Below are positions 1 to 57,242 of a DNA stretch of 64,000 bases, piece after piece; within the stretch, counting starts at the first letter, position 1, and each line of letters starts with the position of its first letter. Below the pieces are notes generated by a model. The model was not told the DNA's origin, ran no database searches, and saw only the letters and a program-made list of their open reading frames with translations. The position numbers and the translations under genes are program-made. The DNA lies in NCBI RefSeq assembly GCF_026212465.1, contig NC_080049.1, positions 1,867,460 through 1,931,459 of the forward strand, in the 5' to 3' direction. Source of the stretch: Amaranthus tricolor (lineage: Eukaryota > Streptophyta > Magnoliopsida > Caryophyllales > Amaranthaceae).

Positions 1-1150
1 CAAGAAATTAAGTTATCACCTAGAAAAACACAGTAACCAGAAGTTGAGCGGCGAGTGTTAGGACAGCCACCCCAATCAGCATCGGTATAGGACAAAAGAG
101 TTGAAATATTAGAACGATGTAACTGCAGACCATAGGGAAGAGTACCCTTGACATAGCGAAGAATGCGATGAATAGTAGCCATATGTTCAATGCGAGGATC
201 ATGCATATAGAGGCAAACTTGCTTAACAGCATATGAAATATCTGGACGAGTAAAAGTAAGATACTGTAAAGCACCAGCTAGGCTACGATACAAGGTAGGA
301 TCGTCACAAGGAAAACCAGCACTAGCACAAAGTTTGCCGGAGGTAGCAACAGGAGTAGCAATAGAATTACATTGGGACATGCCAGCCTTTTCAAGAATTT
401 CAGAGGCATACCTTTGTTGAGAGAGAAAGAGGCCCGTAGAAGTGCGAGTAACAGCAATACACGAGAAATAATTAAGAGGACCCAAATCTTTCATGGCAAA
501 TTCAGAGCTAAGTTTGGACATAATGGACTCACGAAGTGAATCTGAGGAAGCGGTGAGAATAATATCGTCCACATATAATAGCAGATAAGCAATATCAGAG
601 CCATGACAGTAAACAAACAAGGAATTATCAGAAATGTTGTTAGAAAAGCCAATAGTAGTTGCAAACGTAGCAAACCGTTGATACCAGACACGTGGAGCCT
701 GTTTGAGACCATAAAGAGATTTACGAAGAAGACAAACATGATTAGGACGAGTAGGATCACGAAAACCCATAGGCTTATGCATGTAAACAGTCTCAGTTAA
801 ATGTCCATGTAAAAAAGCATTCTTAACATCAAGCTGATGAATAGACCAAGACCTGGAAAGAGCAATACTTAAAACAATGCGAATAGAAGCAGGTTTCACA
901 ACCGGACTAAATGTCTCATCACAATCAATGCCTTCCCGTTGAGATTTACCATCACCAACAAGACGCGCTTTATAGCGCTCAAAAGAACCATCGGACTTGG
1001 TTTTGAAACGAAACACCCATAAAGACCGAATGATATTAGCATTAGGAGGACGAGGTACCAAATCCCAAGTATGATTCTCAATCAAAGCATCAAATTCCTC
1101 TTGCATAGCTAACTTCCAGTTCGGGTCACGAAGGGCATGAAGGGGAGATT
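1..1150 (-). pseudogene. copia pol 3' part: reverse transcriptase and RNase H (open, partial)
   Basis: Reverse reading gives one uninterrupted frame from a stop at about 1163 to the window edge. The reverse transcriptase has the W-x-F-R-x-K start region, the YKARLV and DVKNAFLHG blocks and the catalytic LYVDDIILT box. RNase H begins with SYTDADWGG and is cut by the edge. An in-frame TAA at about 1161-1163 separates it from the upstream integrase part, where the plus-strand copy reads through, so the polyprotein is broken here. Role in an active element: copying element RNA into cDNA in virus-like particles. Judged a non-functional fragment because the upstream frame is broken and gag is absent. 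Confidence 0.88.
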
Positions 1151-1160
1151 TGGGTAAAGG

Positions 1161-3098
1161 TTAAAAAGAATTAGTTAAAGCTTGGGAGTAGTATTTGGGA
1201 TTGGGTTTAAAAATACCATATTTACTACGTGTAACCATACCGATTGGTGAGGATGAAGAATTGGAAGAGGAGGAATAAAGAGGTTGGATGAGTGGGCTGC
1301 ATGAGGCAGGCCCAATAGAGAAGGGGGAGAAAGGAGGAGATTGGATTGAGACTGGGCTGCGTGAGGCAGGCCCAGTAGAGGAGGGAGAGGAAGGAGTTTG
1401 CTGGATGGGAGCTGGGCTGCGTGAGGCAGGCCCAGTAGAGGAGGGGGATTGCTGGAACGATACTGAGCCAGACGTAGAGAGAGGCCCAAGAGCTGAAGGA
1501 GGCTGGCAAGGGGAGGGAGAAGCAGATGTTGGGCTTAGAGATAGATTAGGCCTAGTAAAGGGAAAAGAATGTGTATGGGCTGTTTTGAGCAAATGAAGAG
1601 GAATATTATCATCTAAGAATTGGTAGGTGTGGGAAATCGGGGAAGAAGATCGAGAAAAAGGAAAGGTAGCCTCATCAAATAGAACATGTCGAGAGATAAT
1701 GATTTTACGGGATGAGAGATCATAGCACTTGTAACCCCTATGAGACGAGGGATATCCTAAAAAGACACATGGAGTAGAGCGTGGGTAGAGTTTTTGGATA
1801 GTAGTAGAGGGAAAAAGAGGAAAACATAAACACCCAAAAATCCGGAGATGAGTATATGTAGGAGACTTACGATATAGCAAATGAGTGGGAGTGAGATTAT
1901 CAAGAAGTTTAGAAGGAAGGATATTAAGGAGATAAGTAGCTATGTTTAAGGCGTGAGGCCAAAAAGACGGAGGAAGGGAAGCATGACATAATAGAGTACG
2001 AAATGTTATTGATGGAGCGGATTTTGCGTTCGGATTTGCCATTTTGAGAAGATGTATAAGGACAATAAAAACGAAGAGTAATACCCCGACTAGTACAAAT
2101 TGATGAAACATATTATTGTTAAATTCACCCCTATTATCACATTGGAAAGATTTTATGTTAAGCTCAAATTGGGTATTAACAAAAGGATTGAAATTTACAA
2201 ACACATCATAAACTTGAGATTTGCGAAATAAAGAAAAAGTCCATAAAAAATTGGTATAATTACCAAGAAAAAGAACATAGTATTTATATCCTGATGGACT
2301 AGAAATAGGAGATGTCCACAAATCATTATGAATAATATCAAAAGATTTAGTACTCATAGACATAGAATTAACAAAAGATAATTGAAAGTGTTTCCCCAAA
2401 GGACAAGAAAGATAAACAAAATGAGGATCTTTGTTACATTGAATTAAACGAGAAGAATACAAGGAATTTAAAATCGCATTGCCCGGATGTCCTAAACGGG
2501 AATGCCAAAGATTAGAAGAAAAAGCGGTAAAAGCCGATGATGTGGATGAAGGAGAAGCTCCATGTGTAGATGGAAAAGGATAAAGATCACCTGTGCTATT
2601 AGATCTTAGAATGATGCTCCCTGTGGCTAAATCCTTCACAGAGAAGCCAAAAGGATCGAACTCAACAGACACCATATTATCATAAGTGAATTTACGAACA
2701 GAAATAAGGTTTTTAATAAGTTTAGGTGCATGTAAAACATTTTTAAGAGTAAGGGATTTTTGGGAGGAAGGAAAAGAAATATGCCTGTGACCATGAACTG
2801 GAATTAAATTACCATTACCGACAACAATAGCATTATTGAATTGATGCTGTAAAGGAAAATAAGGAAGTAAAGTACCTTGAGAACGAGTCATGTGGGATGT
2901 AGCACCGGTATCCATATAAAATTGCTCATCCGGAGTAGACAAAGAGAGAGTATTCATAGCTTGATTGATGGCCGTAGGAATATAATTCATAGAAGCATTA
3001 GTCTCGGTGTGATAATTTTGTGCCGGTCGTGGACCATTATTTGAAGAACAAGGAGGAGCCCAAGAGGTAGTAGGATGAATTTTTGTGGGAGAGGCCAT
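1161..3098 (-). pseudogene. copia pol 5' part: gag remnant, protease, integrase
   Basis: A 645-codon frame starting MASPTKIHP. About 22 leader residues jump directly to the C-terminal tail of gag, so most of gag including any zinc knuckle is missing. The protease active-site motif is intact (MDTGATSHM). The GAG-pre-integrase block (LWHSRLGHPG) follows. Its second cysteine pair is damaged: an expected H-x-C is not seen before CPLGKH. Integrase core motifs are partly present (HNDLWTSPIS, CDNRGEF) but the region around 2010-2090 reads out of frame relative to the family, so the third acidic residue lies in another frame. The C-terminal third (about 1280-1560) is Pro/Ser-rich, made of imperfect repeats of roughly 60 bp encoding GPASRSP. 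Confidence 0.87.
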
Positions 3099-3211
3099 AG
3101 AGAAGAGAGACTAAAGAAATAAAGAAAGAAAAGAAAAGAGAGAAAAATGGTGGCAGCTTTTGGAGTAAGGGAAGAAAGAGTAAGGATCAAAAACCAAAGC
3201 TTCTGATACCA

Positions 3212-9822: not shown

Positions 9823-9936
9823 TGGTATCAGAAGCTTCGGTTTTTTGATCCTTACTCTTTCTTCCCTTACTCCAAAAGCTGCCACCATTTTTCTTTCTTT
9901 TCTTTTCTTTCTTTATTTCTTTAGTCTCTCTTCTCC

Positions 9937-11863
9937 ATGGCCTCTCCCACAAAAATTCATCCTACTACCTCTTGGGCTCCTCCTTGTTCTTCAAATAATG
10001 GGTATTGTGATGGTCTTCTTGGTCCACGACCGGCACAAAATTATCACACCGGGACTAATGCTTCTATGAATTATATTCCAACGGCCATCAATCAAGCTAT
10101 GAATACTCTTTCTTTGTGTACTTCGGATGAGCAATTTTATATGGATATCGTTGCTACATCCCACATGACTCGTTCTCAAGGTACTTTACTTCCTTATTTT
10201 CCTTTACAGCATCAATTTAATAATGCTAATGTTGTCGGTAATGGTAATTTAATTCCAGTTCATTGTCACGGGCATATTTCTTTTCCTTCCTCCCAAAAAT
10301 CCCTTACTCTTAAAAATGTTTTACATGCACCTAAACTTATTAAAAACCTTAATTCTGTTCGTAAATTCACTCATGATAATATGGTGTCTATTGAGTTCGA
10401 TCCTTTTGGCTTCTCTGTGAAAGATTTAGCCACAGGGAGCATCATTCTGAGATCTAATAGCACGGGTGATCTTTATCCTTTTCCATCTACACATGGAGCT
10501 TCTCCTTCATCCACATCATCGGCTTTTACTGCTTTTTCTTCTAATCTTTGGCATTCCCGTTTAGGACATCCGGGCAATGCGGTTTTAAATTCCTTGTATT
10601 CTTCTCGTTTAATTCAATGTAATAAAAATTCTCATTTTGTTTGTCATTCTTGTCCTTTAGGAAAACATATTCAATTACCTTTTGTTAAATTTATGACTAA
10701 GAGTTCTAAACCCTTTGATATTATTCATAGTGATTTATGGACGTCTCCCATTTCTAGTCCATCGGGATATAAATATTATGCTCTTTTTCTTGATAATTAT
10801 ACTAATTTTTTGTGGACTTTTCCTTTATATCGCAAATCTCAAGTTTATGATGTGTTTGTGAATTTTCATACTTTTATTAGAACCCAATTTGAGCTTAATA
10901 TAAAATCTTTCCAATGTGATAACGGGGTGAATTTGACAATAATATGCTTCGTCAATTTTGCATTAATCAAGGCAATTTACTTTGTTTTTCATGTCCTTAC
11001 ACATCATCCCAAAATGGCAAATCCGAACGAAAAATTCGATCCATAAATAATATCATTCGCACTCTTTTGTGTCATGCATCACTTCCTCCGTCTTTTTGGC
11101 CTCACGCCTTAAACACGGCCACTTATCTCTTCAATATTCTTCCTTTTAAACTTCTTGATAATCTTACTCCCACTCATTTACTATATCGTAAGTCTCCTAC
11201 ATATAATCATCTCCGGGTTTTTGGGTGTTTATGTTTTCCTCTTTTTCCCTCTACAACTATTCACAAACTCCAACCCCGCTCTACTCCATGTGTCTTTTTA
11301 GGATATCCCTCTTCTCATAGAGGTTACAAGTGCTATGATCTCACATCCCGCAAAATCATTATATCTCGACATGTTCTCTTTGATGAAGCCACCTTTCCTT
11401 TTTCCCAATCACCTTCCTCATCCCCTCAAACTACCCATTCTTGGATGATAATATTCCTCTTCATTTGCTCAAAACAGCCCAAACACCATCTTTTGGGCCT
11501 AATCAATCACTGAGCCCAACACCTACTCCCCCCTCCCACTGCCAAACTTCTTCACCAATTGGGCCTATTCTCCTGACCGACTCACATATACTCCCTTACT
11601 CTCCACCTTCCTCCTCCCCTACTAGGCCTGCCTCACGCAGCCCAGTACCACTTCTTTCTTCCTCTCCCACTGGGCCTACCCCAGTAAGCCCAGCCCCATC
11701 CGGTCCAGCAGCCCCCCAGCTCTCTTCAACTTCCCCTCTCTCAACTGGGCCTGCTGGACGCAGCCCAATACCCCAACCCCCTTCTTCCTCCCCTTTCTCT
11801 ATATTGGGCCTGGCTCACGCAGCCCAATCCACCCTTCTCCTTCTTCCTCACCCACCGGTATAA
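9937..11863 (+). pseudogene. copia pol 5' part: protease, integrase (frameshifted)
   Basis: Begins MASPTKIHP as in the minus-strand copy and likewise lacks most of gag. The protease motif is damaged: MDIVATSHM where the sister copy has MDTGATSHM. The GAG-pre-integrase zinc region (LWHSRLGHPG, then HFVCHSCPLGKH) is better preserved here. The integrase core starts HSDLWTSPIS. Near 10922 a G run is one base short, so the frame ends at 11046 while the integrase C-terminal part continues in another frame from 10944 (SSQNGKSERKIR). A further shift near 11440 leads into the Pro/Ser-rich linker up to 11863. At least three lesions make it non-functional. Confidence 0.9.
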
Positions 11864-11991
11864 CTACGCGGAGTAAACATGGTATTTTCAAACCCAATCC
11901 CAAATACTACTCTCAAGCTTTATCTGTTTCTTTTTCACCTTTACCCAAATCTCCCCTTCATGCCCTTCGTGACCCGAACTGAAAGTTAGCT

Positions 11992-13485
11992 ATGAAAGAA
12001 GAATTTGATGCTTTAATTGAGAATCATACTTGGGATTTGGTACCGCGTCCTCCAAATGCTAATATCATTCGGTCTTTGTGGGTATTTCGTGTCAAGACCA
12101 AGTCCGATGGCTCTTTTGAGCGCTATAAAGCGCGTCTTGTTGGTGATGGTAAATCTCAAAGGGAAGGCATTGATTGTGATGAGACTTTTAGTCCGGTTGT
12201 GAAACCTGCTTCTATTCGCATTGTTTTAAGTATTGCTCTTTCCAGGTCTTGGTCTATTCATCAACTTGAAGTTAAGAATGCTTTTTTACATGGTCACTTA
12301 ACTGAGACTGTTTATATGCATCAGCCTATGGGTTTTCGTGATCTTAGTCGTCCTGATCATGTTTGTCTTCTTCGTAAATCTCTTTATGGTCTCAAACAGG
12401 CTCCTCGTGCTTGGTACCACCGGTTTGCCACTTTTGCGACTACCATTGGGTTTACTAACAGCATTTCTGATAATTCCCTATTTGTTTATTGTCATGGCTC
12501 TGATATTGCTTATTTGCTATTATATGTGGACGATATTATTCTTACAGCTTCTTCTGATTCACTTCGTGAGTCTCTTATGTCCAAACTTAGTTCTGAGTTT
12601 GCCATGAAGGATTTGGGTCCACTTAATTATTTCTTGGGTATTGCTGTTACTCGTACTTCTACGGGTCTCTTTCTATCTCAACAACGGTATGCCTCTGAAA
12701 TTCTTGAAAAAGTTGGCATGTCTCAATGTAATCCTGTTGCTACTCCTGTTGCTACCTCCGGCAAACTTTGTGCTAATGCTGGTTCTTCTTGTGACGATCC
12801 TACCTTGTATCGTAGTCTAGCTGGAGCTTTACAGTATCTTACTTCATATGCTGTTTCATATGCTGTTCAGCAAGTTTGCCTTTATATGCATGATCCTCGC
12901 ATTGAACATATGGCTGCTATTCACCGCATTCTTCGCTATGTCAAGGGCACTCTTCACTATGGTCTGCAGTTATATCGGTCTAATATTTCGACTCTTTTGT
13001 CCTATACCGATGCTGATTGGGGTGGTTGTCCTGACACTCGCCGCTCCACTTTTGATTACTGTGTTTTTCTGGGTGATAATTTAATTTTCTGGTCAGCTAA
13101 ACGCAAACCTACTGTTTCCAAGTCTAGTGCTGAAGCTGAATATCGTGGTGTTGCTAATGTTGTTTCTGAAACTTGCTGGATTCGCAATTTCCTTCTTGAG
13201 CTACACTGTCCTATTTCCACTGCTACTCTTGTCTATTGTGACAATGTTAGTGTTGTTTATTTAGCTGGTAATCCGGTCCATCATCAGCGCACTAAGCACA
13301 TTGAGATCGACATTCACTTTGTTCGTGAAAAAGTCAAACGTGGTGATGTTCGAGTACTTCATGTCCCATCTCGTTATCAGATTGCTGACATTTTCACCAA
13401 AGGCCTTCCTCAAGTATTATTTGATGATTTTCGTTCCAGTCTCAACGTCTCCAAACCGCCCGATTCGACTGCGGGGGTGTATTAG
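11992..13485 (+). pseudogene. copia pol 3' part: reverse transcriptase and RNase H
   Basis: A 497-codon frame covers the RT (YKARLV, AFLHGHLTE, LLYVDDIILT) and RNase H (SYTDADWGG, SSAEAEYRG, YCDNVSVVYLAGNP, RTKHIEID) and ends in the 3' LTR. A TGA just upstream (11981-11983) replaces a Trp codon kept in the minus copy, cutting it from the integrase part. A short segment around 12842-12866 reads SYAVSYAV where the sister copy has a TRPDI-type motif, a local deletion/duplication in the RT thumb region. RNase H keeps its acidic residues. Confidence 0.9.
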
Positions 13486-15910: not shown

Positions 15911-16579
15911 TGTAGGAAAGTATGGAACAAAATAAACTCTGATATTATATTATTTTTTTATTTTAGGAAATATTGTGTTAGAATATTATCCATCTATTTT
16001 AGAAATTTAAGATATTGTGCTATTTTAAATTCTATGTTTAAGTTCTTGAGCTTTTGTATATATAGGAGTAGAGCTGTTCAAAACAAACCCGGCTCGAAAA
16101 TCCGATCCAAAATCGAAAATTATCCGACCCGAAAAATGTAAGGTTTTCAGGTTTACCGAACCGCAATTACCCGAACCGATACTTCACTCGAACCGTTTGA
16201 TAACCGAAAAGGGCAAAATCGAACTCGAACTGCAACCGAATTTTATAACCGACATATAAACCTTAACCGATGTTACCCGAACTGAATAGTGATCGACCCG
16301 AGTCAAATCAAACCCGAATTATGCACGTAATCGAATGTAACCTGACTAAAACCGATTAAGATCGATCTGTTTTTAACCCGAATTGATACAAACCCGAATC
16401 GATTATTAATCGAACTGTTTTTAACCCGAACTGATACAAACCCGAACAGATTGTAAATCAAAATGTTATAAATCCTAATCAAATTTTCACCTAATTTTAG
16501 AAAATTAAGTCCGATTTCAGTTTTCTAATAATACGGAAAAAGGAAGAACACAAGTTCTATACAGAAGAGATTGCATACA

Positions 16580-16719
<140 letters not shown>

Positions 16720-16997
16720 ATTGAAATAAATTGATCTGCCTATTAGGGCTGGCAAAAGCTGACCCGACCTGCTAACCTGATCTGAAACCGATCCGAAATT
16801 AGCGGGTTTGGTTTAGAATTTTGACCCAATTAATTAAATGGGTCAACCCAACCTGATCTTTTTATTAAATCGGTTAGGTTCAGGTATAATATTTAAACCC
16901 GAAAAAAACCTGTTTAACCCATTTATTAAATTTTAGACGGATCAACATTTGCCAAATATTTCGTAAAACTAAGATAATACCAATTACCATGTATTGA

Positions 16998-17115
16998 GGG
17001 ATTTGTGAGCTGAAGATGACTTTCAATAAAAAAGAAAGTTGTCCCACATCGGCTAAGGGATTTGTCAGCTGAAGATGACTTTCAATAACAAAAGAAGTTG
17101 TCCCACATCGGCTAT
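16998..17115 (+). promoter_or_regulatory. tandem 59-bp duplication containing snRNA upstream sequence elements (USE)
   Basis: Two copies of a 59-bp unit (16998-17056 and 17057-17115), each ending in GTCCCACATCGGCTA. RTCCCACATCG is the plant snRNA upstream sequence element. The proximal copy (17100-17110) is followed about 30 bp on by TTTAAAT (17142-17148), a plausible TATA box at a spacing near that known for RNA polymerase II-type plant snRNA genes, and then by the U5 RNA. A second AT-rich candidate, TAATAAA near 17125, would be too close. Confidence 0.78.
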
Positions 17116-17174
17116 GAAAGATACTAATAAAAGAAAAATCCTTTAAATCACTTCCACAGATCTCATATCAACTT

Positions 17175-17295
17175 ACGCAGCCACGACGTGAACACAAACT
17201 GAACTATTCTTTCGCCTTTTACTAAAGAATACCGTGTGCTCGCTGCATTAAGTGGCATACGTTTATTTTTGGAGGAAGCCTTTAATTAAGGTTAA
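17175..17295 (+). ncRNA. U5: U5 spliceosomal snRNA gene
   Basis: U5 snRNA holds exon ends together in the spliceosome through its invariant loop 1. Here loop 1 is exact (CGCCTTTTACT, 17213-17223) on a perfect 7-bp stem (ATTCTTT 17206-17212 with AAAGAAT 17224-17230). A second stem pairs ACAC (17192-17195) with GTGT (17234-17237), and GCAG (17177-17180) can pair with CTGC (17243-17246). A canonical Sm site ATTTTTGG (17265-17272) follows, then a 3' hairpin AGCCTT/AAGGTT (17277-17293). A USE motif and TATA-like box lie upstream. The exact 5' end is uncertain by about 10 bases, and no clear plant 3' box is seen. With all structural elements intact it may be functional; its position inside a transposon means it could also be a transposed copy. 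Confidence 0.87.
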
Positions 17296-17963
17296 ATGGG
17301 TCAAATGACCTGAAATATATGAATTTAATGACCTAAAAAAAAAATAGGTCAGATTGGGGTTTCAATTTTTGACCCATTTAATTAAATGGGTCAGGTTCAG
17401 GTCAAGGGTTTATTGACCCATTTATATATGACCCGAACCTGAAATGACCCAATCCGACCTGTTTGACACCCCTATCTGCTATATCTGATAAAACAATCGG
17501 TAATTATTTTTTGTAAGTAAATGAGCGTACATCAATTAAAAACCTGACTATTAACTTATTTTGATATTGACCCGATCAATAGTTATCCGTAACCGATAAC
17601 TACTCGAAAAATAAAGTTCGAACCCGATCTGTACCCGAAAAAACCGAACCAATTAGTAATCGATGACAACCCGAGACCGATTGACACTCGACACGAACTT
17701 CAACCGACACCGAACTGATGCTAAACCGATAGCTTGAATAACCGATCTCCAACCGAACCGTGACTAACCGACTCGACCCGAGTGTGACCCGTTGTAACAC
17801 ACAGCCGAAAAATAACCGAATCGAATAACACCCGTTCGAAACCGACCCGATCAACCGAATGAACACCTCTATATAGGAGGGTTTTTTTCCTCAAATTATA
17901 AATAATACATATCAAGTATTTAAAACTCAAATCATTCTTATTTTCGCATTATGATTTTTTACA

Positions 17964-23327: not shown

Positions 23328-23918
23328 AGGAGAGAAAACTTTTATTACTAGAAGAAACCCAAAATACAAATATTGGCTAGATTATAGAAAATAAGAGTTT
23401 ATAAATTACTCCAATACATAAAACCTTAGCCAAAATAGATTTTTTTGGGATGATGCAAAACTAATGCCCAAAACTCCTTTTATAAGGAGAAGAATAACAA
23501 GCCTTTGTTATTCTTCCGATGTGGGATAATGATAAACATTAATCTTCCAATGTGGGATAATGAAAAACATTAATCTTCCAATGTGGGATAATGACAAACA
23601 TCAATCTTCCAATGTAAGGTTATGTCGTGAATCCCACATTGGAAGATTGATGTTTGTCATTATCCCACATTGAAATATTAATGTTTTTTATTATCCCACA
23701 TTGGAAGATTAATGTTTATCATTATCCCACATCGGAAGAATAACAAAGGCTTGTTATTCTTCTCCTTATAAAAGAAGTCTTGGGCATTAGTTTGCATCAT
23801 CCCAAAAAAATTTGTTTTGGCTAAGGTTTTCTGTATTGGAGTAATTTATAAACTCTTAATTTCTATAATCTAGCCAATTTTTATATTTTGGGTTTCCTCT
23901 AATAATAAAATTTTACGC
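23328..23918. repeat. 600-bp hairpin 1, arms resemble an LTR
   Basis: The left arm (23328-23625) and right arm (23627-23918) are near-perfect inverted repeats around about 23626. Each arm, read outward, has three copies of a 31-bp repeat (TCCCACATTGGAAGATTAAT-type), then TCCCACATCGG, then CTTATAAAAG about 31 bp on, then AATAAA. Left of the arm (23238-23330) the complement of a plant LTR U5 end is visible (ACGTGGTTCACCGACAATG, CCACATGCAGAGGAG). I read the arms as two head-to-head LTR copies. Confidence 0.8.
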
Positions 23919-24029: not shown

Positions 24030-24186
24030 TTAAAAAAAAAAATATAAGTCGCACAAAACGTGCGACTGTTTTGTGCGACTGTCAGTCGCACGTTTTGTGC
24101 GACTGGTTTGTGCGACTGTCAGTCGCACGTTTTGTGCGACTGGTATTTTTTTTTTTAATTTTTTTTTATTATTATTATTTTTATTA

Positions 24187-24603: not shown

Positions 24604-24877
24604 CATTAATAATAAAAAAAAAATTAAAAAAAATTAAAAAAAAAAATATCAGTCGCACAAAACGTGCGACTGACAGTCGCACAAAGCAGTCGCACGTTTT
24701 GTGCGACTGATATATATTTTTTTATTATTATTAATTTTATTATTATTATTATTATCATTACAGTTATTATTATTAATTTTATTATTATTATTATTATTAT
24801 TATAAATATTGTTGTTGTTATTATTATTATTATTAAATTATTATTTTTGTTTTAATTATTATTATTATAAGTCCAAA

Positions 24878-25485
24878 TGCAGTGGAGAGAAAAACTTTAT
24901 TACTAAAAGAAACCCAAAATACAAATATTGGCTAGATTATAGAAAATAAGAGTTTATAAATTACTCCAATACATAAAACCTTAGCTAAAATAGATTTTTT
25001 TGGGATGATGCAAAACTAATGCCCAAGACTCCTTTTATAAGGTGAAGAATAACAAGCCTTTGTTATTCTTCCGATGTGGGATAATGATAAACATTAATCT
25101 TCCAATGTGGGATAATGAAAAACATTAATCTTCCAATGTGGGATAATGACAAACATCAATCTTCCAATGTAAGGTTATGTCTTGAATCCCACATTGGAAG
25201 ATTGATGTTTGTCATTATCCCACATTGAAAGATTAATGTTTTTCATTATCCCACATTGGAAGATTAATGTTTATCATTATCCCACATCGGAAGAATAACA
25301 AAGGCTTATTATTCTTCTCCTTATAAAAGGAGTCTTGGGCATTAGTTTTGCATCATTCCAAAAAAATTTGTTTTAGCTAAGGTTTTCTCTATTGGAGTAA
25401 TTTATAAACTCCTAATTTCTATAATCTAGCCAATATTTGTATTTTGGGTTTTCTCTAATAATAAAATTTTACACTTTTTTTCTTA
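24878..25485. repeat. 600-bp hairpin 2, near-copy of hairpin 1
   Basis: Same structure as the hairpin at 23328-23918, centred near 25182, with a few substitutions. It lacks the extra U5-like flank found left of hairpin 1. Confidence 0.82.
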
Positions 25486-25598: not shown

Positions 25599-25732
25599 TA
25601 CAAGTCGCACAAAACGTGCGACTGTCAGTCGCACGTTTTGTGCGACTGGTTTGTGCGACTGTCAGTCGCACGTTTTGTGCGACTGGTATTTTTTTTTTTA
25701 ATTTTTTTTATTATTATTATTTTTATTATTAA

Positions 25733-26366: not shown

Positions 26367-26846
26367 TGTTTAGATTTTCGGGTTCAAATATAATTTTTTA
26401 AGACTTAGACTTTAATCATAACATAGATGTCTCTTTAGTGGAATGGTATACCGCGCGATTTCTTATGAACATAAACGAAAGAACCCTTACTTTAAATGCA
26501 TGTGGAAACATGACGACATAGGAGTACGTGTTACTTTTTTGATCTAACTAAATAGAAAAATATAAATAAATATTTACATCGGATATTTAAATATGTATAT
26601 TTGATCTAACTAATCAGAATTAGTTACCAAAATCATTAAATATCAAATCGTCAAATCTATTTTAATGACTTTTAGCTCTAGTCCCTAAGTCTCACCTAAC
26701 TAACAATTAATTTTGTGTACCATTAAAATTACTACGATCTAATTTTACCCAAAATGCGCAAAATCCCCACAGCCGCAGGTTCGTTCCATTTTATCTATGC
26801 TTCAAAATATAAGACCACCAATCACAAAACAAACCGTTCAAATACA

Positions 26847-27887
26847 ATGGAAGAAGAAGCCAAATCATTCCTCAAAACATACTCGCTCATATTTACATCT
26901 CTTTCTTATTCTTATTTCATCGTCTCCAAAATCCCACCTGGAAAATTCAGATTATTTTCTCTCTTACCAATCTTCACTCTATTTACCATTTTACCCTTTT
27001 CTTTCTCCTCTGTTCTTCTTGCAGGAATCACTGCTCTTTTCATCACTTGGCTTGGAAACTTCAAGCTTCTTCTATATGCTTTCAATCATGGCCCTTTATC
27101 AAATCATCAGCCCATCAAAAATCTATCATTTCTTCAATTTTTACTAATTTCAGCTTTTCCCATCAAAATTAAAGACCCATTTACCCGAATCCGAAAACCC
27201 ACTTCCAAATTTTTGCCCTTAAATTTCTGGTCTGAAACCCTAATTTTCTCCATTTTTGTGGGTATTTGTGATTTTTATAAACAAAATTTAAATCATGGGT
27301 TGATTTTTGTGATTTATTGTTGTATGTTGTATTTATTCATTGACATTATTATGAGTGTTAGTAATACAATTGTGGGGTCCATTATGGGTTTTGAGCTATT
27401 TCCACCGTCAGATGAGCCTTATTTATCATCATCTATCAGTGATTTTTGGGGAAGAAGATGGAACCTCATGGTAACAGATATACTGCGTCACACTGTGTAT
27501 AAACCCACAAGGGTATTTTTATCCAATTATATAGGCCGAGATTGGGCTTCTGTTATTTCTGTGATAGCGGCGTTTGTGGTATCTGGGCTAATGCATGAGC
27601 TGATTTTTTATTATATGGCACGTGTGAGTCCCTCGTGGGAAGTTACTTGGTTTTTTGTGTTACATGGGCTTTGTGTGGTTTTGGAGTTTTGTTTGAAAAA
27701 GGTTTTGGGCCGGAAATTGGGCCTACATTGGGTTATTACTGGCCCGTTGACTGTTGGGTTTGTGATGGGCACTGGATATTTGTGGTTCTTTCCACCACTT
27801 GTTATGAACAAAGTCGATGTAAGAGCTATTGAGGAGGCTATGACTTTGTATGAGTTTATTAAGGGGAAATTAAAAAAAATGTTATAA
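26847..27887 (+). CDS. MBOAT acyltransferase, wax synthase / acyl-CoA:sterol acyltransferase-like
   Basis: Single-exon gene, 346 aa. The family moves a fatty acyl group from acyl-CoA to a long-chain alcohol (wax ester) or sterol in the ER membrane. I chose the ATG at 26847 (MEEEAKSFLK), as family members start with a short acidic N-terminus before the first membrane helix; an ATG at 26754 would add 31 residues with no family character. Several hydrophobic helices are evident (about 10-30, 40-75, 130-175, 235-260, 265-280, 295-320). The MBOAT motif FWGRRWN lies at 200-206 and the putative catalytic His at 250 in SGLMHE. Length and motif order are normal for the plant wax synthase domain. The nearest genes are transposon-derived, so there is no functional neighbourhood. 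Substrate (alcohol or sterol) cannot be told from sequence. Confidence 0.9.
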   Translation: MEEEAKSFLKTYSLIFTSLSYSYFIVSKIPPGKFRLFSLLPIFTLFTILPFSFSSVLLAGITALFITWLGNFKLLLYAFNHGPLSNHQPIKNLSFLQFLLISAFPIKIKDPFTRIRKPTSKFLPLNFWSETLIFSIFVGICDFYKQNLNHGLIFVIYCCMLYLFIDIIMSVSNTIVGSIMGFELFPPSDEPYLSSSISDFWGRRWNLMVTDILRHTVYKPTRVFLSNYIGRDWASVISVIAAFVVSGLMHELIFYYMARVSPSWEVTWFFVLHGLCVVLEFCLKKVLGRKLGLHWVITGPLTVGFVMGTGYLWFFPPLVMNKVDVRAIEEAMTLYEFIKGKLKKML

Positions 27888-30281: not shown

Positions 30282-33200
30282 TAGACCTGTCAAATATGAA
30301 CCCGACCCGCTAAACCCAAAAAACCCGACCCGCAAAAAGCGGGTTTTGAACAAATATTTTTAAAAAGTGACCCGTTTAACCCGCTTTTTTAAACCCGCAA
30401 AAAATGGGTCAAAAACGGGTCGGGTCGGGTCTGACCCGTCGGGTTTAACCCTTAAAATTTAAAAATTAAAAGAGGAAAGAAAGGCGCTTCATTCATTTCA
30501 TCCAGCCGGCCCTAATCTGCGTTGTTCTTCATCCTCACAAGTCACACCTCACTCCTCAGGCGATCGTTCCTTCTTCAGAGTTCTTCTTCATCCTCAGTCA
30601 TCATCTCCGTTCCCAGTCATCATCAGCCCTAAATCTATGGGACGTCGAGCTTCAAGTAGTAGCCGCCGCCGCCCTCCGTTCCCACGAAAAGGGTGTTCAG
30701 ACTGTTCACCATCACCTCTTGGACAATTCTTTTCTTCTTCATCATCTCCCACTCCTCAAGAAGGTAATTTGAAGTACCAATTTCATTTGTTTACTTGTTG
30801 ATTTGTAGTTAATTTTAGTTTGCGTATTCGGATTCTGGCAATTTCAGTATGAATCGCTGTTTTCTTCGAATTCCTCGCGAATTTCTGGGCGTGTAGGTTC
30901 CAATTTCTTCGAGGTTTTAACAATGTCGAAGAAATTGTTTAAATTTAATTATATTTTGGTGCTTGGTTTTTGTTGTTTGATAATAGTCTCTGTATTTTCT
31001 GGATTGTTGTTTGTTGTTTGCTTAAATTTAATTGTTGTTTGTTTAAATTTCATTGTCTGCTTTTTAAGTTGTTCTGGATTGTTCTGGAATCTGGATTGTT
31101 CTTGATTATTGCTCTGCTTTTCAAGTTTAAAGTTTGGAATTTGGATTGTTCTTGGATTGTCCATTGTCTCCCTAGAGTGCTTTTCCGAAATGGCCCTAGC
31201 AAGATCAAGCATTTTCCAAGCTAAGTCCAAGTCAGACTCCTCCTCTTCCTCTGCTTCAGCAAGTTCCTCTGTATCGCTTTCCTCGTTTCCATCTCCCTCA
31301 TCCTTGTTGTTAGCTATCATTAAAGAGAAAATTCCATCAGGAAAATACTGCCAAAATAATAGTGAGAAAATTTGCAGTTAATGATATGTCTTCACATAAC
31401 TTTTGTTCAAAAATGTTGTTAAAGCCTCCTAATAATAGAAACATGAACATGTGTTGATAAAATTAATGGGATATATTATAAGATCGATTATAGAAAAACA
31501 ATAATGGAGTTTATATTATCAATGAGGACAAGTTGAAAGGAAGTTCAATAAATGTTGAAAACTTCTGCTAAACAATTAAAATTGATCAACATCTGCATAA
31601 ATCAAACTTCAAAGGCAAATGATGACACTTTTAGACCCAAATGCTAATATAATGAACCTGTAATCTACATTGTTTTGTAGGAGTTGAGCCAAATGATGAT
31701 AGTAACAATCCTGGAACAGATGGAAGTTATGGAACAGATGTTGAGACTCCTAACATTGGGCAAGAAGCTACTCCAACATTCGGAACTCGCAAGAGAAAAT
31801 GGACATCAGATTGTTGGGACCATTACAATACTTTCGATGGTGATGAATTCGCTGATAAGAGGCCAAGAGCTTACTGTAAGTATTGTAATAAAGGACCTAT
31901 CTTTGCCGACTCAATGTATGGTACTACTAATTTTAGACGTCACACTGAATCTTGTCAAGCTCGTGATAATTGTGATATTCGTCAAATGCTCTTAGATAAA
32001 AAAGCTAAGCCTGTTTTGAAATACAATCCTATTGAGTACAAACAAAAGGTTGCTTTGGCTATCATTAGGCATGGATATAGTTACACTTTTGCTGAGCATG
32101 AAGGGAATAGGGATATCCATACATATTTAAATGAAAATTGTAAACCAATATGTCGAAATACAGCTAGGAATTGGACTATTAAAATTCATCAAAGGGAGAG
32201 AAAACAATTAAAAAAGGCATTACATGTTATCCCTGGAAAGATTTGCTTGACATCGGATATGTGGTCCTCAATTGTTGGTCAAGGATACCTTTCTTTAACT
32301 GCTCATTACATAGATGAGAATTGGAAGTTGCACAACAAGATACTTAATTTCTGTCATGTTCCTCCTCCTCATAATGCTCAAGTGTTACATGATACTATTC
32401 TTGATAATCTGAAAAAATGGGGAATACATAAGAAAATATTTTCCATTACTTTAGATAATGCTAGATGCAATGATAATATGCAAGACTTGTTGGCAGATAG
32501 TCTTTCTGTTTTTGGTAGCTTGCCATGTGATGGTGAATATTTTCATGTTCGTTGTGGTGCTCATGTGTTGAACTTGATTGTTCAAGATGGATTGAAATGT
32601 GTTAGTGATTCTTTGAGTAAAATTAGGCAATTGGTTAGACATTGGACTTCTTCGGAAGCTAGGAAAATGAAATTTGCTGAATGTGTTTCTGGAGTTGGTT
32701 TGGATTGTTCTACAGGTCTTTTGTTGGATTGTCCAACGAGGTGGAATTCTACATTCATGATGATTCAAAGGGCTTTGGTATACAAAGTTGTTTTCTCTAG
32801 GTTAGGAAGATCGGATACATCAACTTCTACTTTAACTGAGGAAGAATGGTCTAGACTTGCAAAAATTTGTGATCTACTTAGGCCATTTGACCTTATTACC
32901 AAGCAATTTTCGGGAAGGAATTATCCAACAGCAAACTTGTATTTGATGAATGTCTGGTCAATTGAGTCTCTCATATTGAGTTATTGTAATATTGAGGATG
33001 AGTCGATAAGCAATATGGCGAAGGGCATGAAGGCTAAATTTGATAAGTATTGGGAAAACTATAGCATGATTCTTTCCATGGCTGCCATTTTAGATCCTCG
33101 CTTAAAACTTCAATATGTGAAGTTTTGTTTTGTGCAATTAGATGGTAGAAGTGCTGAATATAAGACTGAGAAAGTGAAAGAAAGTCTCTTCAAGCTATTT

Positions 33201-34246
33201 GAAGAGTATTCACAAGTTGATAATTCTCCCCTTGATTGTACTAGAGTTGGAAGCGGGAATGCAAGTCTTACTGTAAGTTTTCATTCTTAACCTTTTGATA
33301 TTATGTTGTACTTAAATTTGTTATTCAATAATTATTAATAGAAGTTCTCTTGTTTTGTAGGCGTTTTCATCTTATGAGAATTCTTCTTCTCAAGGTAGAA
33401 CACAACTAGATGACTACTTAGGTGAGCATAAATTGGATCCTTTGTCGGATTTGGATGTTCTTGGTTGGTGGAAGGATAATGCTAAAAGGTTTCCACAAGT
33501 TGCAAGTATGGCAAGAGATTTGTTAAGTATTCCAATTACTACTGTTGCTTCCGAGTCGAGTTTTAGCTTGGGAAGTAGGATACTAACAAAATGGAGAGCT
33601 TCCTTACTACCGGAGAGTGCCGAGACTTTGGTCACAACCCGAAGTTGGCTATATGGATATGATGTTGAAAATGGTAAATTGTCTTTCTTTTTTTGCATTT
33701 TGAGAAATAAAGAGATTCATAGCTAATTAAATAGTTCGTTTTTTATTTGTGTGAAGATAACAATTCTCTTGAAGACGGTGTTGAAATTCCGATTTTGCGG
33801 GATCCAAACAAAGAACCTCAAGTTATCGGCGTAGAAGAGAGCGGAATTGAAATTCTTGAAGATGATGATTTTTAGTAAATGTTGTCTTAGATTATCAAAT
33901 AGTAGACTATGACCAAGTTTATTAAATTGTAATTGTCATACTTTGTTGAACTAATTTTATTTTCTGTTTCATGCAACTTTTGATATGTACTCTATATAAG
34001 TTACAATTTTATCGTAATAGGTACATACTAAAATATTATCGTAATAGGTACATATTAATATATTATCATTGACGTAAATTATTTTTTCAAAAAAGTGCAA
34101 AACCAGTTGGGTCAACCCGAACCCGACAACTTAGGGTCTTAAACGAGGTAGTCTAAACCCGAAACCGTAATTTTTTAAACCCGTTCAACCCGAACCCGAA
34201 AATATTTTTATACGACCCGACCCGTCCGACCTGTTTGACAGGTCTA
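30282..34246 (+). mobile_element. autonomous-looking hAT transposon, 3965 bp
   Basis: Ends are TAGACCTGTCAAA and its exact inverted complement. Both subterminal regions are dense in GACCCGACCCG/GGGTCGGG words. A perfect 8-bp target duplication GGTGCCAT flanks it (30274-30281 and 34247-34254). It encodes a full four-exon transposase without any stop or frameshift that I can see. Intact TIRs, TSD and gene suggest a young, possibly active element. Confidence 0.93.
30637..33875 (+). CDS. hAT transposase (BED zinc finger, RICESLEEPER-like), 4 exons, 716 aa
   Basis: Cuts and rejoins the element ends. Exons by GT-AG rule and frame: 30637-30763, 31681-33272, 33361-33673, 33757-33875. Exon 1 encodes an Arg/Ser-rich start (MGRRASSSSRRRR). 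A BED-type zinc finger lies at about residues 85-135 (C108, C111, H130, C134). The RNase H-like core has candidate catalytic acids D235 (LTSDMW), D301 (TLDNA) and E638 (ASESSFS), with the hAT C-x2-H motif at 334-337 (RCGAHVLNL). The C-terminal dimerisation region follows (PITTVASESSFSLGSRIL). The tail is acidic (EDDDF). Intron 1 is 917 bp and holds a minus-strand frame that I reject as a gene. No lesion found. Exon 1 and its start are inferred only from frame continuity. Confidence 0.9.
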
Positions 34247-35680: not shown

Positions 35681-38600
35681 ATGTCTGTTGAGGCTTGTAT
35701 AAACCCAAAAATGGTTGCCGAGGATAGTGATGATGATGACACACCCTTGATTTTTAGTAGAAGAAAGCCAACTCAATTAAGCTCGGTATTGAAGAATTCA
35801 TCACCGTCTGTGAGACATGAAAAGCAGCCATTGAAGCCAAGTTCAGATATTAGAAACAATAATGATCGAACTTCTAGTGCATTGAAGGGGAAGACGGCTT
35901 CTTTGTCGAAGCCGTCATCTTCTAAACCCAATCTTGGAGCTCAAAAATCCCCACCCCCATCGTCGAAGCCCTTAAAGCCTTTACCTTCATCGACTAGACC
36001 TTCTCCGTCTCCACCAACATCAGCTAGACCTTCTCCATCTCCGCCTTCTTCAGCTAGAGCTGCTCCTTCTCAGCCGCCTTTGTCAAGTAGACCTTCTCCA
36101 TCTCCGCCTCCTTCATCGAGACCTTCTCCATCTCCGCCTCCTTCATCGAGACCTTCTCCATCTCCGCCTCCTTCGACAAGTAGACCTTCTCCATCTGTTC
36201 CACAATCCAGAGCCCCACCTGTTAAGTCCCCTTCCACCAATGGAGCTTCTTTGGGAAATCACCAGTCAAGAAAGGATAATCATGCCAAAGAGCAGAAGCG
36301 TGCACCCATTGCAGTTAAAGAGGAAAAGGTCGTTAAGCATACTAGTGATGAGTCTGATGATTCCGATGATAAGCTACTTAGTGCAAGGTGTTCTGTTGGG
36401 TTACAGAAGGGAAATGCGGAAATTAAGCCCACTAAAAGTGATTATGTGGATTCTGATGATGAAAAGCCACTTAGTTCGAGGATGGATAAGGGAAGGGCTG
36501 TTGCTGGAGCATCTCAAACTCAGAAATCAAAGACGGGGAGTGTGAAATCACCAGATGATTCGGATGATGACAAGCCATTGTCGTCTAACATGAGGAAAAA
36601 CAACAGCGGGACACATTGCAAGTATGATGATTCAAATGAACATAAGCCTTTGGTTTCTAGGCTACAATAAAATGGATCGATCAAGAGGGAAAACCAAAGT
36701 AAGGTACCCAGTAATTCAATTAAAAGGCCTTCAGAGGCCTCTGTTGGTCAACCTTCTATGAAAAAAGCAAAACTTACTGCTTCATCCACCTCCGGTAATG
36801 TTAGGCAAATACCATTGAAATCCGATGTCAAAGATGATGATGACCACGTTCCAATAGGTCAGCGTATGAATAAAGCTGGATCAACCAGTAAATCAGTGCC
36901 TGTGAAAAAGGCTGCTAAATTTGATTCTTCGAAGTTGAAAGTAAACAAGAATTCAAAAAAAATAATGAAGCAATCAAAATACTCAAAGTCTTCAAAAGAG
37001 TTACCTAGTTCAGGTGATGGGCAGAAATGGACAACCTTAGTTCATCATGGTGTTATATTTCCTCCTCCATATAAGCCTCATGGGGTTAAGATGCTGTATG
37101 ATGGTAAACCGGTTGACCTCACACCCGAGCAAGAGGAGGTTTGCCCTGTTCCCTTTTTTATTTTCAGCTAATTTAACTCTAAGCTGTGTCTTTTTTTGCT
37201 TAAAAGCTTTTATCTTGCTAGCCACTTATTTTATACTACACTTCACTTTTCCGCTTTGTAGGTTGCGACTATGTATGCAGTGATGCTTGAGACTGATTAT
37301 GTAAAGAAGAAAAAATTTAATGAAAACTTTTTTGGTGACTGGAAGAAAATTCTTGGGAAGAACCATGTAATTCAGGATTTTAGCAAATGTGATTTTCAGC
37401 CCATATACGAATGGCATCTGGGGGAGAAGGAGAAAATGAAGCAAATGAGTACTGATGTAAGCATACCCCATTATAGAATATTGGCATCTTTAGGGATATA
37501 CATCCTTGTTTTCTTTTGCCCAATTATGGTGACTGTTGCATATTTTCATAACAGCTGCTCAAAGTTTAATGTATTGCTTTTGTAGCTGCTATGTTGATTA
37601 ATGGCACATGATATGAAATTATTGAATTTTTTTTGGTATCCCTAAGGATTTGGTACCATTGGTAACTAGTGAATCCTTCTTTTACTGTTCAGAGACTTCC
37701 TTTGACTATATTTTCTTTCCCGGTCCCCTTGCAAGTTCTGATTTACATTGAACCTCTGTTTGTGACCTACATTCCAGAGGCTAACGCGCTCAAGCCAACT
37801 AGCAAGCACTAAGTCAACCCTGTCGCTATCGGGCCCAAGAGGCGAAGTCAATACATTCGAGAGGACAACTCTTGGGTCTAGAGATTAAGATTACTGAAGT
37901 ACTCTATTTATTTATTTATTTTTTGATGAGGAACTACTCTTTTTAATGGGGTGTCATAAATCTGTGAGTCTCCATCGTTTGATAAGGAACTACTATATTT
38001 TCGATGATGTTCATCGATCCTACAGCTTTTACCCTCTACTGTGTACAATAACTATTTTAGCTGATATATCCAGTCAAGTGGCACTGATTACAATATTTGC
38101 GTTTTGTAGAGTTGGCCATTTTTCTTGATGGTTTTGGTTAAGTGCGAAATTGACTGCTATGTTGAATTCTTTGGTCATTCTTATTGCAGGAGAAAAAGGC
38201 AATAAAAGAAGAGAAATTGAAACTAGAAGAGAAGTATATGTGGGCTATTCTTGATGGCGCCAAAGAAAAGGTTCTCTTTCCTCTTATGGTTTATGTGATT
38301 GTGTCCATATTTATTCGTGTGTTTATAAAGAAAAGGTTTTTGTGTTTTTGTTTTTCAATACTAAAAAATCCACCGTTATTGTTTTTTCGTATATTTTTGG
38401 GATCTCTGTTTGGTAACAAGATTCATGTAGTAATGTAGTCTTATACATGAAGCAGTTTGTTGTTAATCAAGTCCATAAAAACATTAATACCAAATATCTT
38501 CAATGTCTGATGCTACTGATTTAAGGCTAACAATAGGATATTGGAAGATAATTGAGTAATATTTTTACTCTATATATTTTACTTTGTTTTTGGTATTCAT

Positions 38601-49754: not shown

Positions 49755-50028
49755 TATAGGGTTTTTAATTTAAAAAAGTAAAAAAATTTTATCAAAAATC
49801 TAAAAATAAGGGCAAGTATTCAAGCAAATCAAATGCAAGATATAACATGCCTTTAACATTTTGGTTTTTCGGTTTTGTTGGACCCTAGACTGAGTCCAAA
49901 CCGAAAACCGAATTATAATTAAAATTCAGTCCAAACCAAACCAAATTTAAAATATAGTCAAACCAAATTACTTATTCGATTTGGTTTGGTTCGGTGTTCG
50001 GTTTTTCACCAAATTACTTACACCCCTA
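49422..50028. mobile_element. non-autonomous hAT-like element, 607 bp
   Basis: The left end TAGGGGGTGAAAGTTTGG and the complement of the right end (TAGGGGTGTAAGTAATTTGG) are imperfect TIRs. Flanks GTCCTCAC (49414-49421) and ATCCTCAC (50029-50036) agree at 7 of 8 positions. Subterminal regions are rich in TTTGGTTTGG/CCAAACCAAA words. It contains an (AAT)n microsatellite at 49676-49752. Confidence 0.83.
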
Positions 50029-52347: not shown

Positions 52348-53065
52348 TAGAGGTGTTCATTGGGGTGATCAGGTCGGTTCCGAACGGGTGTCATTCGGTT
52401 CAGTTGTATTTCGGATCGGTTATTTTTCGGATGTGTGTTACGACGGGTCAAGTCGGTTAGTCACGGTTCGGTTGAAGATCAGTTATTTGAGCTATCGGGT
52501 TAGCATCGGTTCGGTGTCGTTTGAAGTTCGTGTCGAGTAGTCAATCGGTCTCAGACTGTAATCGGTTAATAATTGGTTCGGTTTTACCGGGTACAGATCG
52601 AATTTGGGTATTATTTTCCAGTAGAATTCGGCTACGAATCACTAATTACTATAGATCGAGTCAATATCAGATTAATTTGTTAGATATTTTTTAATTGATG
52701 ATAAGATCCCCTTATAACTAAGGCAAAAAAGTTAAAATACAAATCAGTTAGTTATTATTACTTTGTTACTTTTATTTGTTTGACTGTAAATTAAAATTAA
52801 AGTTTTATCATTTTTCATCTAATTTGATTAAAAATAGTTAAATAAACATTGACCATTGATTATTAACTCTAAATATGAAACCATGCATGTATAAAATTTA
52901 ATTTATTAAAATTTCTATTACTTTATCAGATTAACTAATAAGATGATTGAATATAAGTCAATCATACCTCTATGTTATAATGTCGGTTCGATAAACCTTA
53001 AAAAGAAACATATATTCAAGTCGGTTAACTTCGGTTTCGGGTCGGGTCACATTTGAACAGCTCTA
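52348..53065. mobile_element. non-autonomous hAT-like element, same family as 16069-17871
   Basis: The left end TAGAGGTGTTCATTGGGG and the complement of the right end (TAGAGCTGTTCAAATGTG) match the two ends of the element at 16069-17871 in reverse order. Flanks ATCTTGTA (52340-52347) and ATCTTGCG (53066-53073) agree at 6 of 8. Subterminal GGTTCGG/GTCGGTT words are dense. No coding capacity. Confidence 0.82.
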
Positions 53066-57051: not shown

Positions 57052-57242
57052 TGTTTTCTGTTTAACCAGAAAGGTTTTTGTGTTTTTATATTTATTGCTT
57101 GTATCAAATTCAATAACAGATGATGGTTATTTATACAGAAACTAAAAAATAACTGTTCCTAAGAAGATCTAGTAACTGCAACATTACACACCACTAATAC
57201 AAGTAACTGCTCCTAGTAATAACCGTAATGCATAATCTAACA
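57052..57242 (-). repeat. 3' LTR of the young copia
   Basis: 191 bp, complement begins TGTTAGATTATG and ends GAAAACA. Identical to 61818-62008. The pol stop codon lies just inside it (57237-57239). Confidence 0.96.

What the first reader, a model, noticed from the sequence alone, without database searches (positions are those of the whole stretch)
16744..17474. A structurally complete U5 snRNA gene carried inside a hAT-type transposon
Seen: U5 loop 1 with stem, Sm site ATTTTTGG, 3' hairpin and a USE motif with TATA-like box, all between hAT-type ends (TAGGG..TG.CAAA) and near-identical flanking octamers. Known: loop 1 and the Sm site define U5; RTCCCACATCG is the plant snRNA promoter element. 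Inference: a hAT element captured a whole snRNA transcription unit and moved it, which could spread snRNA genes and explain their dispersal. Capture of Pol II snRNA units by DNA transposons is not something I know to be widely described.
Basis: partly seen in the sequence, partly recalled or inferred. Interest (0 to 1): 0.87.

Follow-up and report, generated by a model that had tools for sequence, protein, structure and literature searches.

The report
U5 RNA gene inside hAT transposon
In this apparently plant DNA a jumping gene of the hAT type seems to have picked up a gene for a splicing RNA (U5) with its promoter, but without the signal needed to finish the RNA's end, so it shows one way such genes could be scattered while leaving doubt that this copy works.

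Summary
Rfam's U5 model matches 17179-17295 (82.2 bits, gathering 40; only gathering-level Rfam hit in the window). Upstream lie two USE motifs, in a 59-bp tandem duplication, and a TATA-like box. The ends 16744 and 17474 are polarised 5' and 3' ends of hAT type: they match the left and right ends, respectively, of a hAT with transposase domains at 30282-34246; swapped pairings are weak. hAT subterminal motifs fill both arms and are absent in between. The flanks TCTGCCTAT/TCTGCTAT look like a target-site duplication with one indel. The whole sits inside another non-autonomous hAT-type element (16069-17871, perfect TSD TATAGGAG).

No plant 3' box lies in 17200-17600, and hAT-type motifs resume 3 nt after the RNA model's end. 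Mature U5 from this copy is doubtful.

Untested: other genomic copies (genome search did not complete), expression, donor gene, species. Best filed as a Pack-hAT-like element with an snRNA cargo: a new variant of a known kind, seen at a single locus.

The parts
16744..17474 (+). U5-carrying hAT-type element, 731 bp
   Evidence: Exact TAGGGNTGNCAAA at both ends facing inward; ends match the left and right ends of the hAT at 30282-34246 respectively
16744..16756 (+). left terminal inverted repeat TAGGGCTGGCAAA
17462..17474 (-). right terminal inverted repeat TAGGGGTGTCAAA
16735..16743 (.). left copy of the likely target-site duplication, TCTGCCTAT (one extra base)
17475..17482 (.). right copy of the likely target-site duplication, TCTGCTAT
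16744..16930 (+). left hAT arm, 9 subterminal motifs (48 per kb), the last starting at 16898
   Evidence: inner boundary set by eye
16931..17295 (+). cargo, 365 nt without any hAT subterminal motif
   Evidence: boundaries set by eye, the left one uncertain by tens of bases
16997..17114 (+). 59-bp tandem duplication (16997-17055, 17056-17114): 1 substitution and 2 single-base indels between copies
17041..17051 (+). distal USE GTCCCACATCG
17100..17110 (+). proximal USE GTCCCACATCG, starting 79 nt upstream of the U5 model start
17142..17149 (+). TATA-like box TTTAAATC, 31 nt after the proximal USE
17179..17295 (+). U5 snRNA (RF00020)
   Evidence: 82.2 bits
17296..17474 (+). right hAT arm, 16 subterminal motifs (89 per kb), the first starting at 17298, next to the U5 3' end; no 3' box
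16069..17871 (+). non-autonomous hAT-type element (TAGAGCTGTTCA / TGAACACCTCTA) that hosts the U5 element; perfect TSD TATAGGAG at 16061-16068 and 17872-17879
30282..34246 (+). hAT with transposase domains (PF14372 in frame 31656-33287, PF05699 in frame 33364-33672), TIR TAGACCTGTCAAA, perfect TSD GGTGCCAT; candidate type of helper

Best explanation
A non-autonomous hAT element (Pack-hAT-like), in what is by its promoter motif and transposon types a plant genome, acquired roughly 365 nt of host DNA holding a U5 snRNA gene with its USE/TATA promoter, and later moved as one unit into another non-autonomous hAT-type element, making a target-site duplication of the TCTGCTAT type. Shown: U5 by covariance model, polarised hAT ends, motif-rich arms and motif-free cargo, near-TSD, nesting. 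Inferred: a transposase of the 30282-34246 type moved it in trans by binding the GACCC-rich arms and cutting at the TAGGG ends. Inferred: the donor U5 gene lost its 3' box because the hAT arm joins within about 3 nt of the RNA's 3' end, so Pol II may start at the USE/TATA promoter but 3'-end cleavage should be poor. I think transcription is about even odds and useful mature U5 unlikely (about 1 in 4). How the DNA was taken up (two neighbouring same-orientation insertions moved together, or filler copied during gap repair) is not settled.
For: U5 hit. Exact inward TIR pair, 0 of 200 shuffles. Left end vs left end of the 30282-34246 hAT 48 (0 of 500 dinucleotide shuffles reach it), vs its right end 24 (13 of 500); right end vs its right end 43 (0 of 500), vs its left 20 (90 of 500). 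In a gapped scan of 100-nt windows (every 10 nt, both strands) each is the best non-self match of the corresponding end. Motif density 48, 0 and 89 per kb in left arm, cargo and right arm; window 4.2. TSD-like flanks. Transposase domains. No 3' box in 17200-17600. 3' box necessary for plant snRNA processing (PMC5079582, passages). Pack-TYPE elements reported for hAT (PMC8903248, abstract and passages).
Against: The TSD is imperfect (9 against 8 bases). Left ends of the nested host element and of its 52-kb copy match the 30282 left end almost as well (39 and 46), and better in an ungapped count of the first 28 nt (20 and 20 against 19); an uncharacterised stretch at 49891-49990 scores 41 with its right end. 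So the end match shows hAT type, not the parent. The U5 element's own two ends agree at 11 of the first 28 positions, all within the 13-nt TIR. No second copy in the window (BLAST); the rest of the genome could not be searched, and no empty site was seen. Outside a shared 24-nt palindrome the two arms show no clear mutual similarity (z 0.7 to 2.0).
Confidence: 0.8

Rival explanations
1. An old resident U5 gene merely happens to lie between two independently inserted hAT-type elements.
For: Both arms contain nearly the same 24-nt palindrome (23 of 24 letters) near their middle, a 4-mismatch start-like motif lies at 17293, and the inner edge of the left arm matches the right end of the 30282 hAT weakly (z 2.8, 5 of 500 shuffles as good), the inner edge of the right arm its left end more weakly still (z 1.6, 39 of 500).
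Against: Only two exact TAGGGNTGNCAAA ends exist in the stretch, next best 3 mismatches. Flanks of each arm taken alone do not match (CTGCCTAT vs TTAAATTT; ATTAAGGT vs TCTGCTAT) whereas the outer pair matches but for one base (arm limits chosen by eye). The outer ends are one left and one right end in the right order. Neither arm is a significant fold-back on its own (z 1.8 and 0.9).
Confidence: 0.1
2. A rival about function only: the cargo is a decaying U5 pseudogene passenger with no useful transcription, of no consequence.
For: No 3' box; 5 of 30 consensus pairs not formed; unconstrained folding not exceptional.
Against: Loop 1, Sm site ATTTTTGG, both USE copies and the USE-TATA-start arrangement are intact; the 59-bp promoter duplication differs by only 1 substitution and 2 indels. 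No plant U5 sequences were available to calibrate 82 bits.
Confidence: 0.5
3. U5 arrived by reverse transcription of the RNA into a hAT element.
For: The cargo stops within about 3 nt of the RNA model's 3' end, as a retrocopy would.
Against: USE and TATA-like box, which are not in the RNA, precede U5 at gene-like distances; no poly(A) run at the junction in the sequence.
Confidence: 0.05

Closest known systems
Pack-TYPE transposons of the hAT superfamily (Pack-hAT; PMC8903248, abstract and passages)
   Same: Non-autonomous TIR element with hAT-type ends that has taken up host DNA and moves it
   Different: The described class is about captured coding DNA; here the cargo is a promoter plus a spliceosomal RNA gene. 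The word snRNA has 0 occurrences in that paper's main text.
Plant Pol II U5 snRNA genes (PMC545797, passages)
   Same: U5 fold, USE and TATA-like box; all 14 Arabidopsis U5 genes are said there to have USE and TATA box
   Different: Bounded by transposon ends, USE duplicated, termination signal CAN3-10AGTNNAA missing
LINE-made snRNA retropseudogenes such as mammalian U6 copies (PMC4476161, title and abstract start in the listing only)
   Same: snRNA sequence spread by a mobile element
   Different: RNA-mediated; here the upstream promoter came along, which points to DNA-mediated capture
Dada DNA transposons and R2-type retrotransposons that insert into snRNA genes (recalled, not looked up)
   Same: Transposon and snRNA gene joined
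   Different: Those insert into snRNA genes; here the transposon carries one

Membership tests
U5 snRNA (RF00020) | Covariance-model score above gathering | tested here: met
   82.2 vs 40 bits, full model length
U5 snRNA (RF00020) | Loop 1 and Sm site | tested here: met
   TTTCGCCTTTTACTAAAGA and ATTTTTGG in the alignment
Plant Pol II snRNA gene | USE and TATA-like box upstream | tested here: met
   USE at 17041 and 17100, TTTAAATC at 17142; the TATA box is only a 6-of-8 match
Plant Pol II snRNA gene | 3' box CA(N)3-10AGTNNAA just downstream | tested here: not met
   None in 17200-17600; best in the 60 nt from 17290 has 2 mismatches, while 982 of 2000 random 60-nt stretches do better
Plant Pol II snRNA gene | Transcribed and processed | not testable with these tools
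   No RNA data
hAT superfamily | Short TIRs of hAT type | tested here: met
   TAGGGCTGGCAAA / TAGGGGTGTCAAA; both ends match those of a hAT with transposase domains
hAT superfamily | 8-bp target-site duplication | tested here: inconclusive
   TCTGCCTAT vs TCTGCTAT, equal but for one inserted base
Pack-TYPE (Pack-hAT) | Non-autonomous: no transposase | tested here: met
   No open frame of 150 aa or more within 16744-17474
Pack-TYPE (Pack-hAT) | Cargo derives from a donor locus elsewhere in the genome | not tested
   Genome search unanswered in 14 of 14 attempts
Pack-TYPE (Pack-hAT) | Captured protein-coding DNA | tested here: not met
   Cargo is an RNA gene; no frame of 150 aa or more

The most novel reading that the evidence does not exclude
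A family of hAT elements carries and multiplies promoter-bearing U5 genes through the genome, some copies landing beside a 3' box or supplying one, so that DNA transposons renew and disperse the spliceosomal RNA gene set of this plant.
Probability: 0.12. Interest if true: 0.85.

Novelty: new variant of a known kind. Interest (0 to 1): 0.55.

Why it matters
snRNA genes are multicopy in plants (74 in Arabidopsis, 14 of them U5: PMC545797, abstract and passages), and how they move around genomes is, as far as I recall, not established. A DNA transposon holding a U5 gene with its promoter gives a concrete route and a testable limit: capture must also take the 3' box to make a working copy. It widens gene capture by TIR transposons from coding DNA to a Pol II RNA-gene promoter plus RNA, which could also place snRNA-type promoters at new sites.

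Tried and rejected
Other genomic copies: the genome search 'own' with the element was sent 14 times and never answered, so copy number, donor gene and empty site are unknown. BLAST of the element against the window found itself, repeats between its own arms, and otherwise pieces of at most 35 nt. The species is unknown; a taxonomy look-up of Amaranthaceae was a guess that I did not use.

Comparator U5 genes: exact U5 loop patterns gave 0 matches in viral contigs and genome contigs, so I could not calibrate the 82-bit score against working plant U5 genes.

Idea that the arms are two complete 182-nt MITEs whose inner ends decayed (the Pack-TYPE route of neighbouring insertions): the arms align (direct z 4.9, inverted z 5.9), and their inner edges weakly match the expected ends (z 2.8 and 1.6). 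But after removal of the shared 24-nt palindrome nothing clear remains between the arms (z 0.7 to 2.0), though one arm shows a within-arm match at z 3.8, and fold-back of each arm is not significant. The 182-nt boundaries were chosen by eye. Kept as possible only.

The 52-kb copy of the host element (52348-53065, minus strand) does not align over the DNA next to the U5 element, so it gives no empty site.

Chance controls for the TIR pattern and TSD are post hoc, since the patterns came from these sequences. The first comparison of ends used plain shuffles; one search repeated the pairs of U5-element ends against the 30282-34246 hAT ends with dinucleotide shuffles.

Literature: the paper search was answered 4 times; 8 calls timed out. 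The listings held 4, 4, 6 and 25 (of 59) papers; none of the listed titles or abstract starts describes snRNA capture by a DNA transposon. The library lacks most subscription journals.

Full report
What was checked. Rfam's U5 model matches 17179-17295 on the + strand with 82.2 bits (gathering 40), over its full length, and is the only gathering-level Rfam match in the 64-kb window. Loop 1 and the Sm site ATTTTTGG are intact in that alignment. Of 30 consensus pairs, 25 form; the five that do not are two at the base of the inner stem, one A-C inside it, and two in the 3' hairpin as the model draws it, although a 6-bp 3' hairpin is predicted there. Free folding of the RNA is not better than shuffles (z -1.35, 19 of 200 as good), so the case rests on the covariance model. 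No other plant U5 was available to compare with.

Promoter. GTCCCACATCG occurs at 17041 and 17100 because a 59-bp segment is duplicated in tandem with 1 substitution and 2 single-base indels. The proximal copy begins 79 nt before the U5 model start and ends 31 nt before TTTAAATC, a 6-of-8 match to TATAAATA. PMC545797 (passages) says all 14 Arabidopsis U5 genes have USE and TATA box; it prints the USE with one C fewer than the finding does. The USE alone is weak evidence here: 17 matches with up to one mismatch lie in the window, 14 of them in repeat arrays near 23.6 and 25.2 kb.

The 3' side. Plant Pol II snRNA genes carry CA(N)3-10AGTNNAA downstream, described as necessary for processing (PMC5079582, passages; also named as termination signal in PMC545797). 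None lies in 17200-17600. In the 60 nt from 17290 the best candidate has 2 mismatches, while 982 of 2000 random 60-nt stretches of the window contain a better one. hAT subterminal motifs begin at 17298, 3 nt after the model's end. The cargo therefore seems to end at the RNA's 3' end and the transcription unit is incomplete.

The element. TAGGGNTGNCAAA occurs exactly twice in the window, at 16744 + and 17474 -; shuffles give 0.04 on average and 0 of 200 with an inward pair within 3 kb. With up to two mismatches the pattern is no commoner than chance (23 against 18.8). A hAT with transposase domains (PF14372; PF05699), TIR TAGACCTGTCAAA and perfect TSD GGTGCCAT lies at 30282-34246. The U5 element's left 100 nt score 48 against that element's left end (0 of 500 dinucleotide shuffles reach it) and 24 against its right end (13 of 500); its right 100 nt score 43 against the right end (0 of 500) and 20 against the left (90 of 500). 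Scanning 100-nt windows every 10 nt on both strands, the U5 element's ends are the best non-self matches of the corresponding ends. The runners-up are close: 46 and 39 for the left ends of the two other hAT-type elements, which also do slightly better in an ungapped count of the first 28 nt (20 and 20 against 19), and 41 for an uncharacterised stretch at 49891-49990 against the right end. So the ends share hAT type and polarity; a direct parent is not shown.

Arms and cargo. Subterminal motifs (GACCY, CCYGA and complements) number 9 in 16744-16930, 0 in 16931-17295 and 16 in 17296-17474; the window average is 4.2 per kb. These limits were set by eye: the last motif of the left arm starts at 16898, so the left edge of the cargo is uncertain. 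Inside the element no further hAT end has fewer than 3 mismatches. Outer flanks read TCTGCCTAT and TCTGCTAT; the flanks of each arm taken alone do not match. Equal similarity at the same spacing occurs at 45 of 28,773 four-letter positions, or 328 of 63,220 of all positions.

Nesting. The U5 element sits in another non-autonomous hAT-type element, 16069-17871, with perfect TSD TATAGGAG. A second copy of that host, 52348-53065 on the minus strand, aligns with 17530-17873 and with about 105 nt of the left end; Rfam finds no U5 there. The U5 element is therefore not a constant part of the host family and most simply arrived after it.

How it probably works. A transposase in trans, of the type encoded at 30282-34246, would bind the GACCC-rich arms and move the unit (inference from hAT biology). 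Uptake of the gene fits either the Pack-TYPE model, in which two neighbouring insertions with deleted or mutated inner ends are moved together (PMC8903248, passages), or filler copying during gap repair (recalled). The arms share a 24-nt palindrome (23 of 24 letters), but little else once it is removed, and their inner edges match hAT ends only weakly, so the route stays open. With promoter present and 3' box absent, I expect weak or read-through transcription rather than a good source of U5.

Novelty. Pack-hAT elements are known for coding DNA (PMC8903248, abstract and passages). My four answered literature searches list no report of an snRNA gene with promoter captured by a hAT, judged from titles and abstract starts; the held library is partial and one search listed 25 of 59 papers. 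I rate it a new variant of a known kind, at a single locus, with copy number and expression untested.

Noticed in passing
window 23508-23743 and 25063-25298: Opposed 31-bp arrays of ATCCCACATTGG/ATCCCACATCGG (snRNA-USE-like); the last exact copy (23724, 25279) lies 32 nt before TATAAAAG, close to the 31-nt gap in the U5 element, here in a repeated element.
   Followed up: partly
window 16069-17871 and 52348-53065: Two copies of a non-autonomous hAT-type family with ends TAGAGCTGTTCA/TGAACACCTCTA; the first has perfect TSD TATAGGAG, the second imperfect flanks CGCAAGAT/TACAAGAT.
   Followed up: partly
window 30282-34246: hAT with both ends, transposase domains and perfect TSD GGTGCCAT; the transposase was not read through from end to end.
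   Followed up: partly
window 49891-49990, minus strand: Stretch scoring 41 against the right end of the hAT at 30282-34246; possibly another hAT end.
   Followed up: no
window 3-3110 and 9925-13485: Long open frames with the same translated start (SLFSMASPTKIHPTTSW) on opposite strands; they look like two copies of one Copia-type retrotransposon, not tested by Pfam. A further Copia-type polyprotein at 57240-60437 was.
   Followed up: no
window 26727-27887 and 36671-37171: Host-gene-like frames: MBOAT_2 acyltransferase and the beginning of the DNA-binding part of eukaryotic topoisomerase I.
   Followed up: no
window 24041-24142, 24646-24710, 25603-25690: Repeats of GTGCGACTG/CAGTCGCAC between (TTA)n runs, palindromic.
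   Followed up: no
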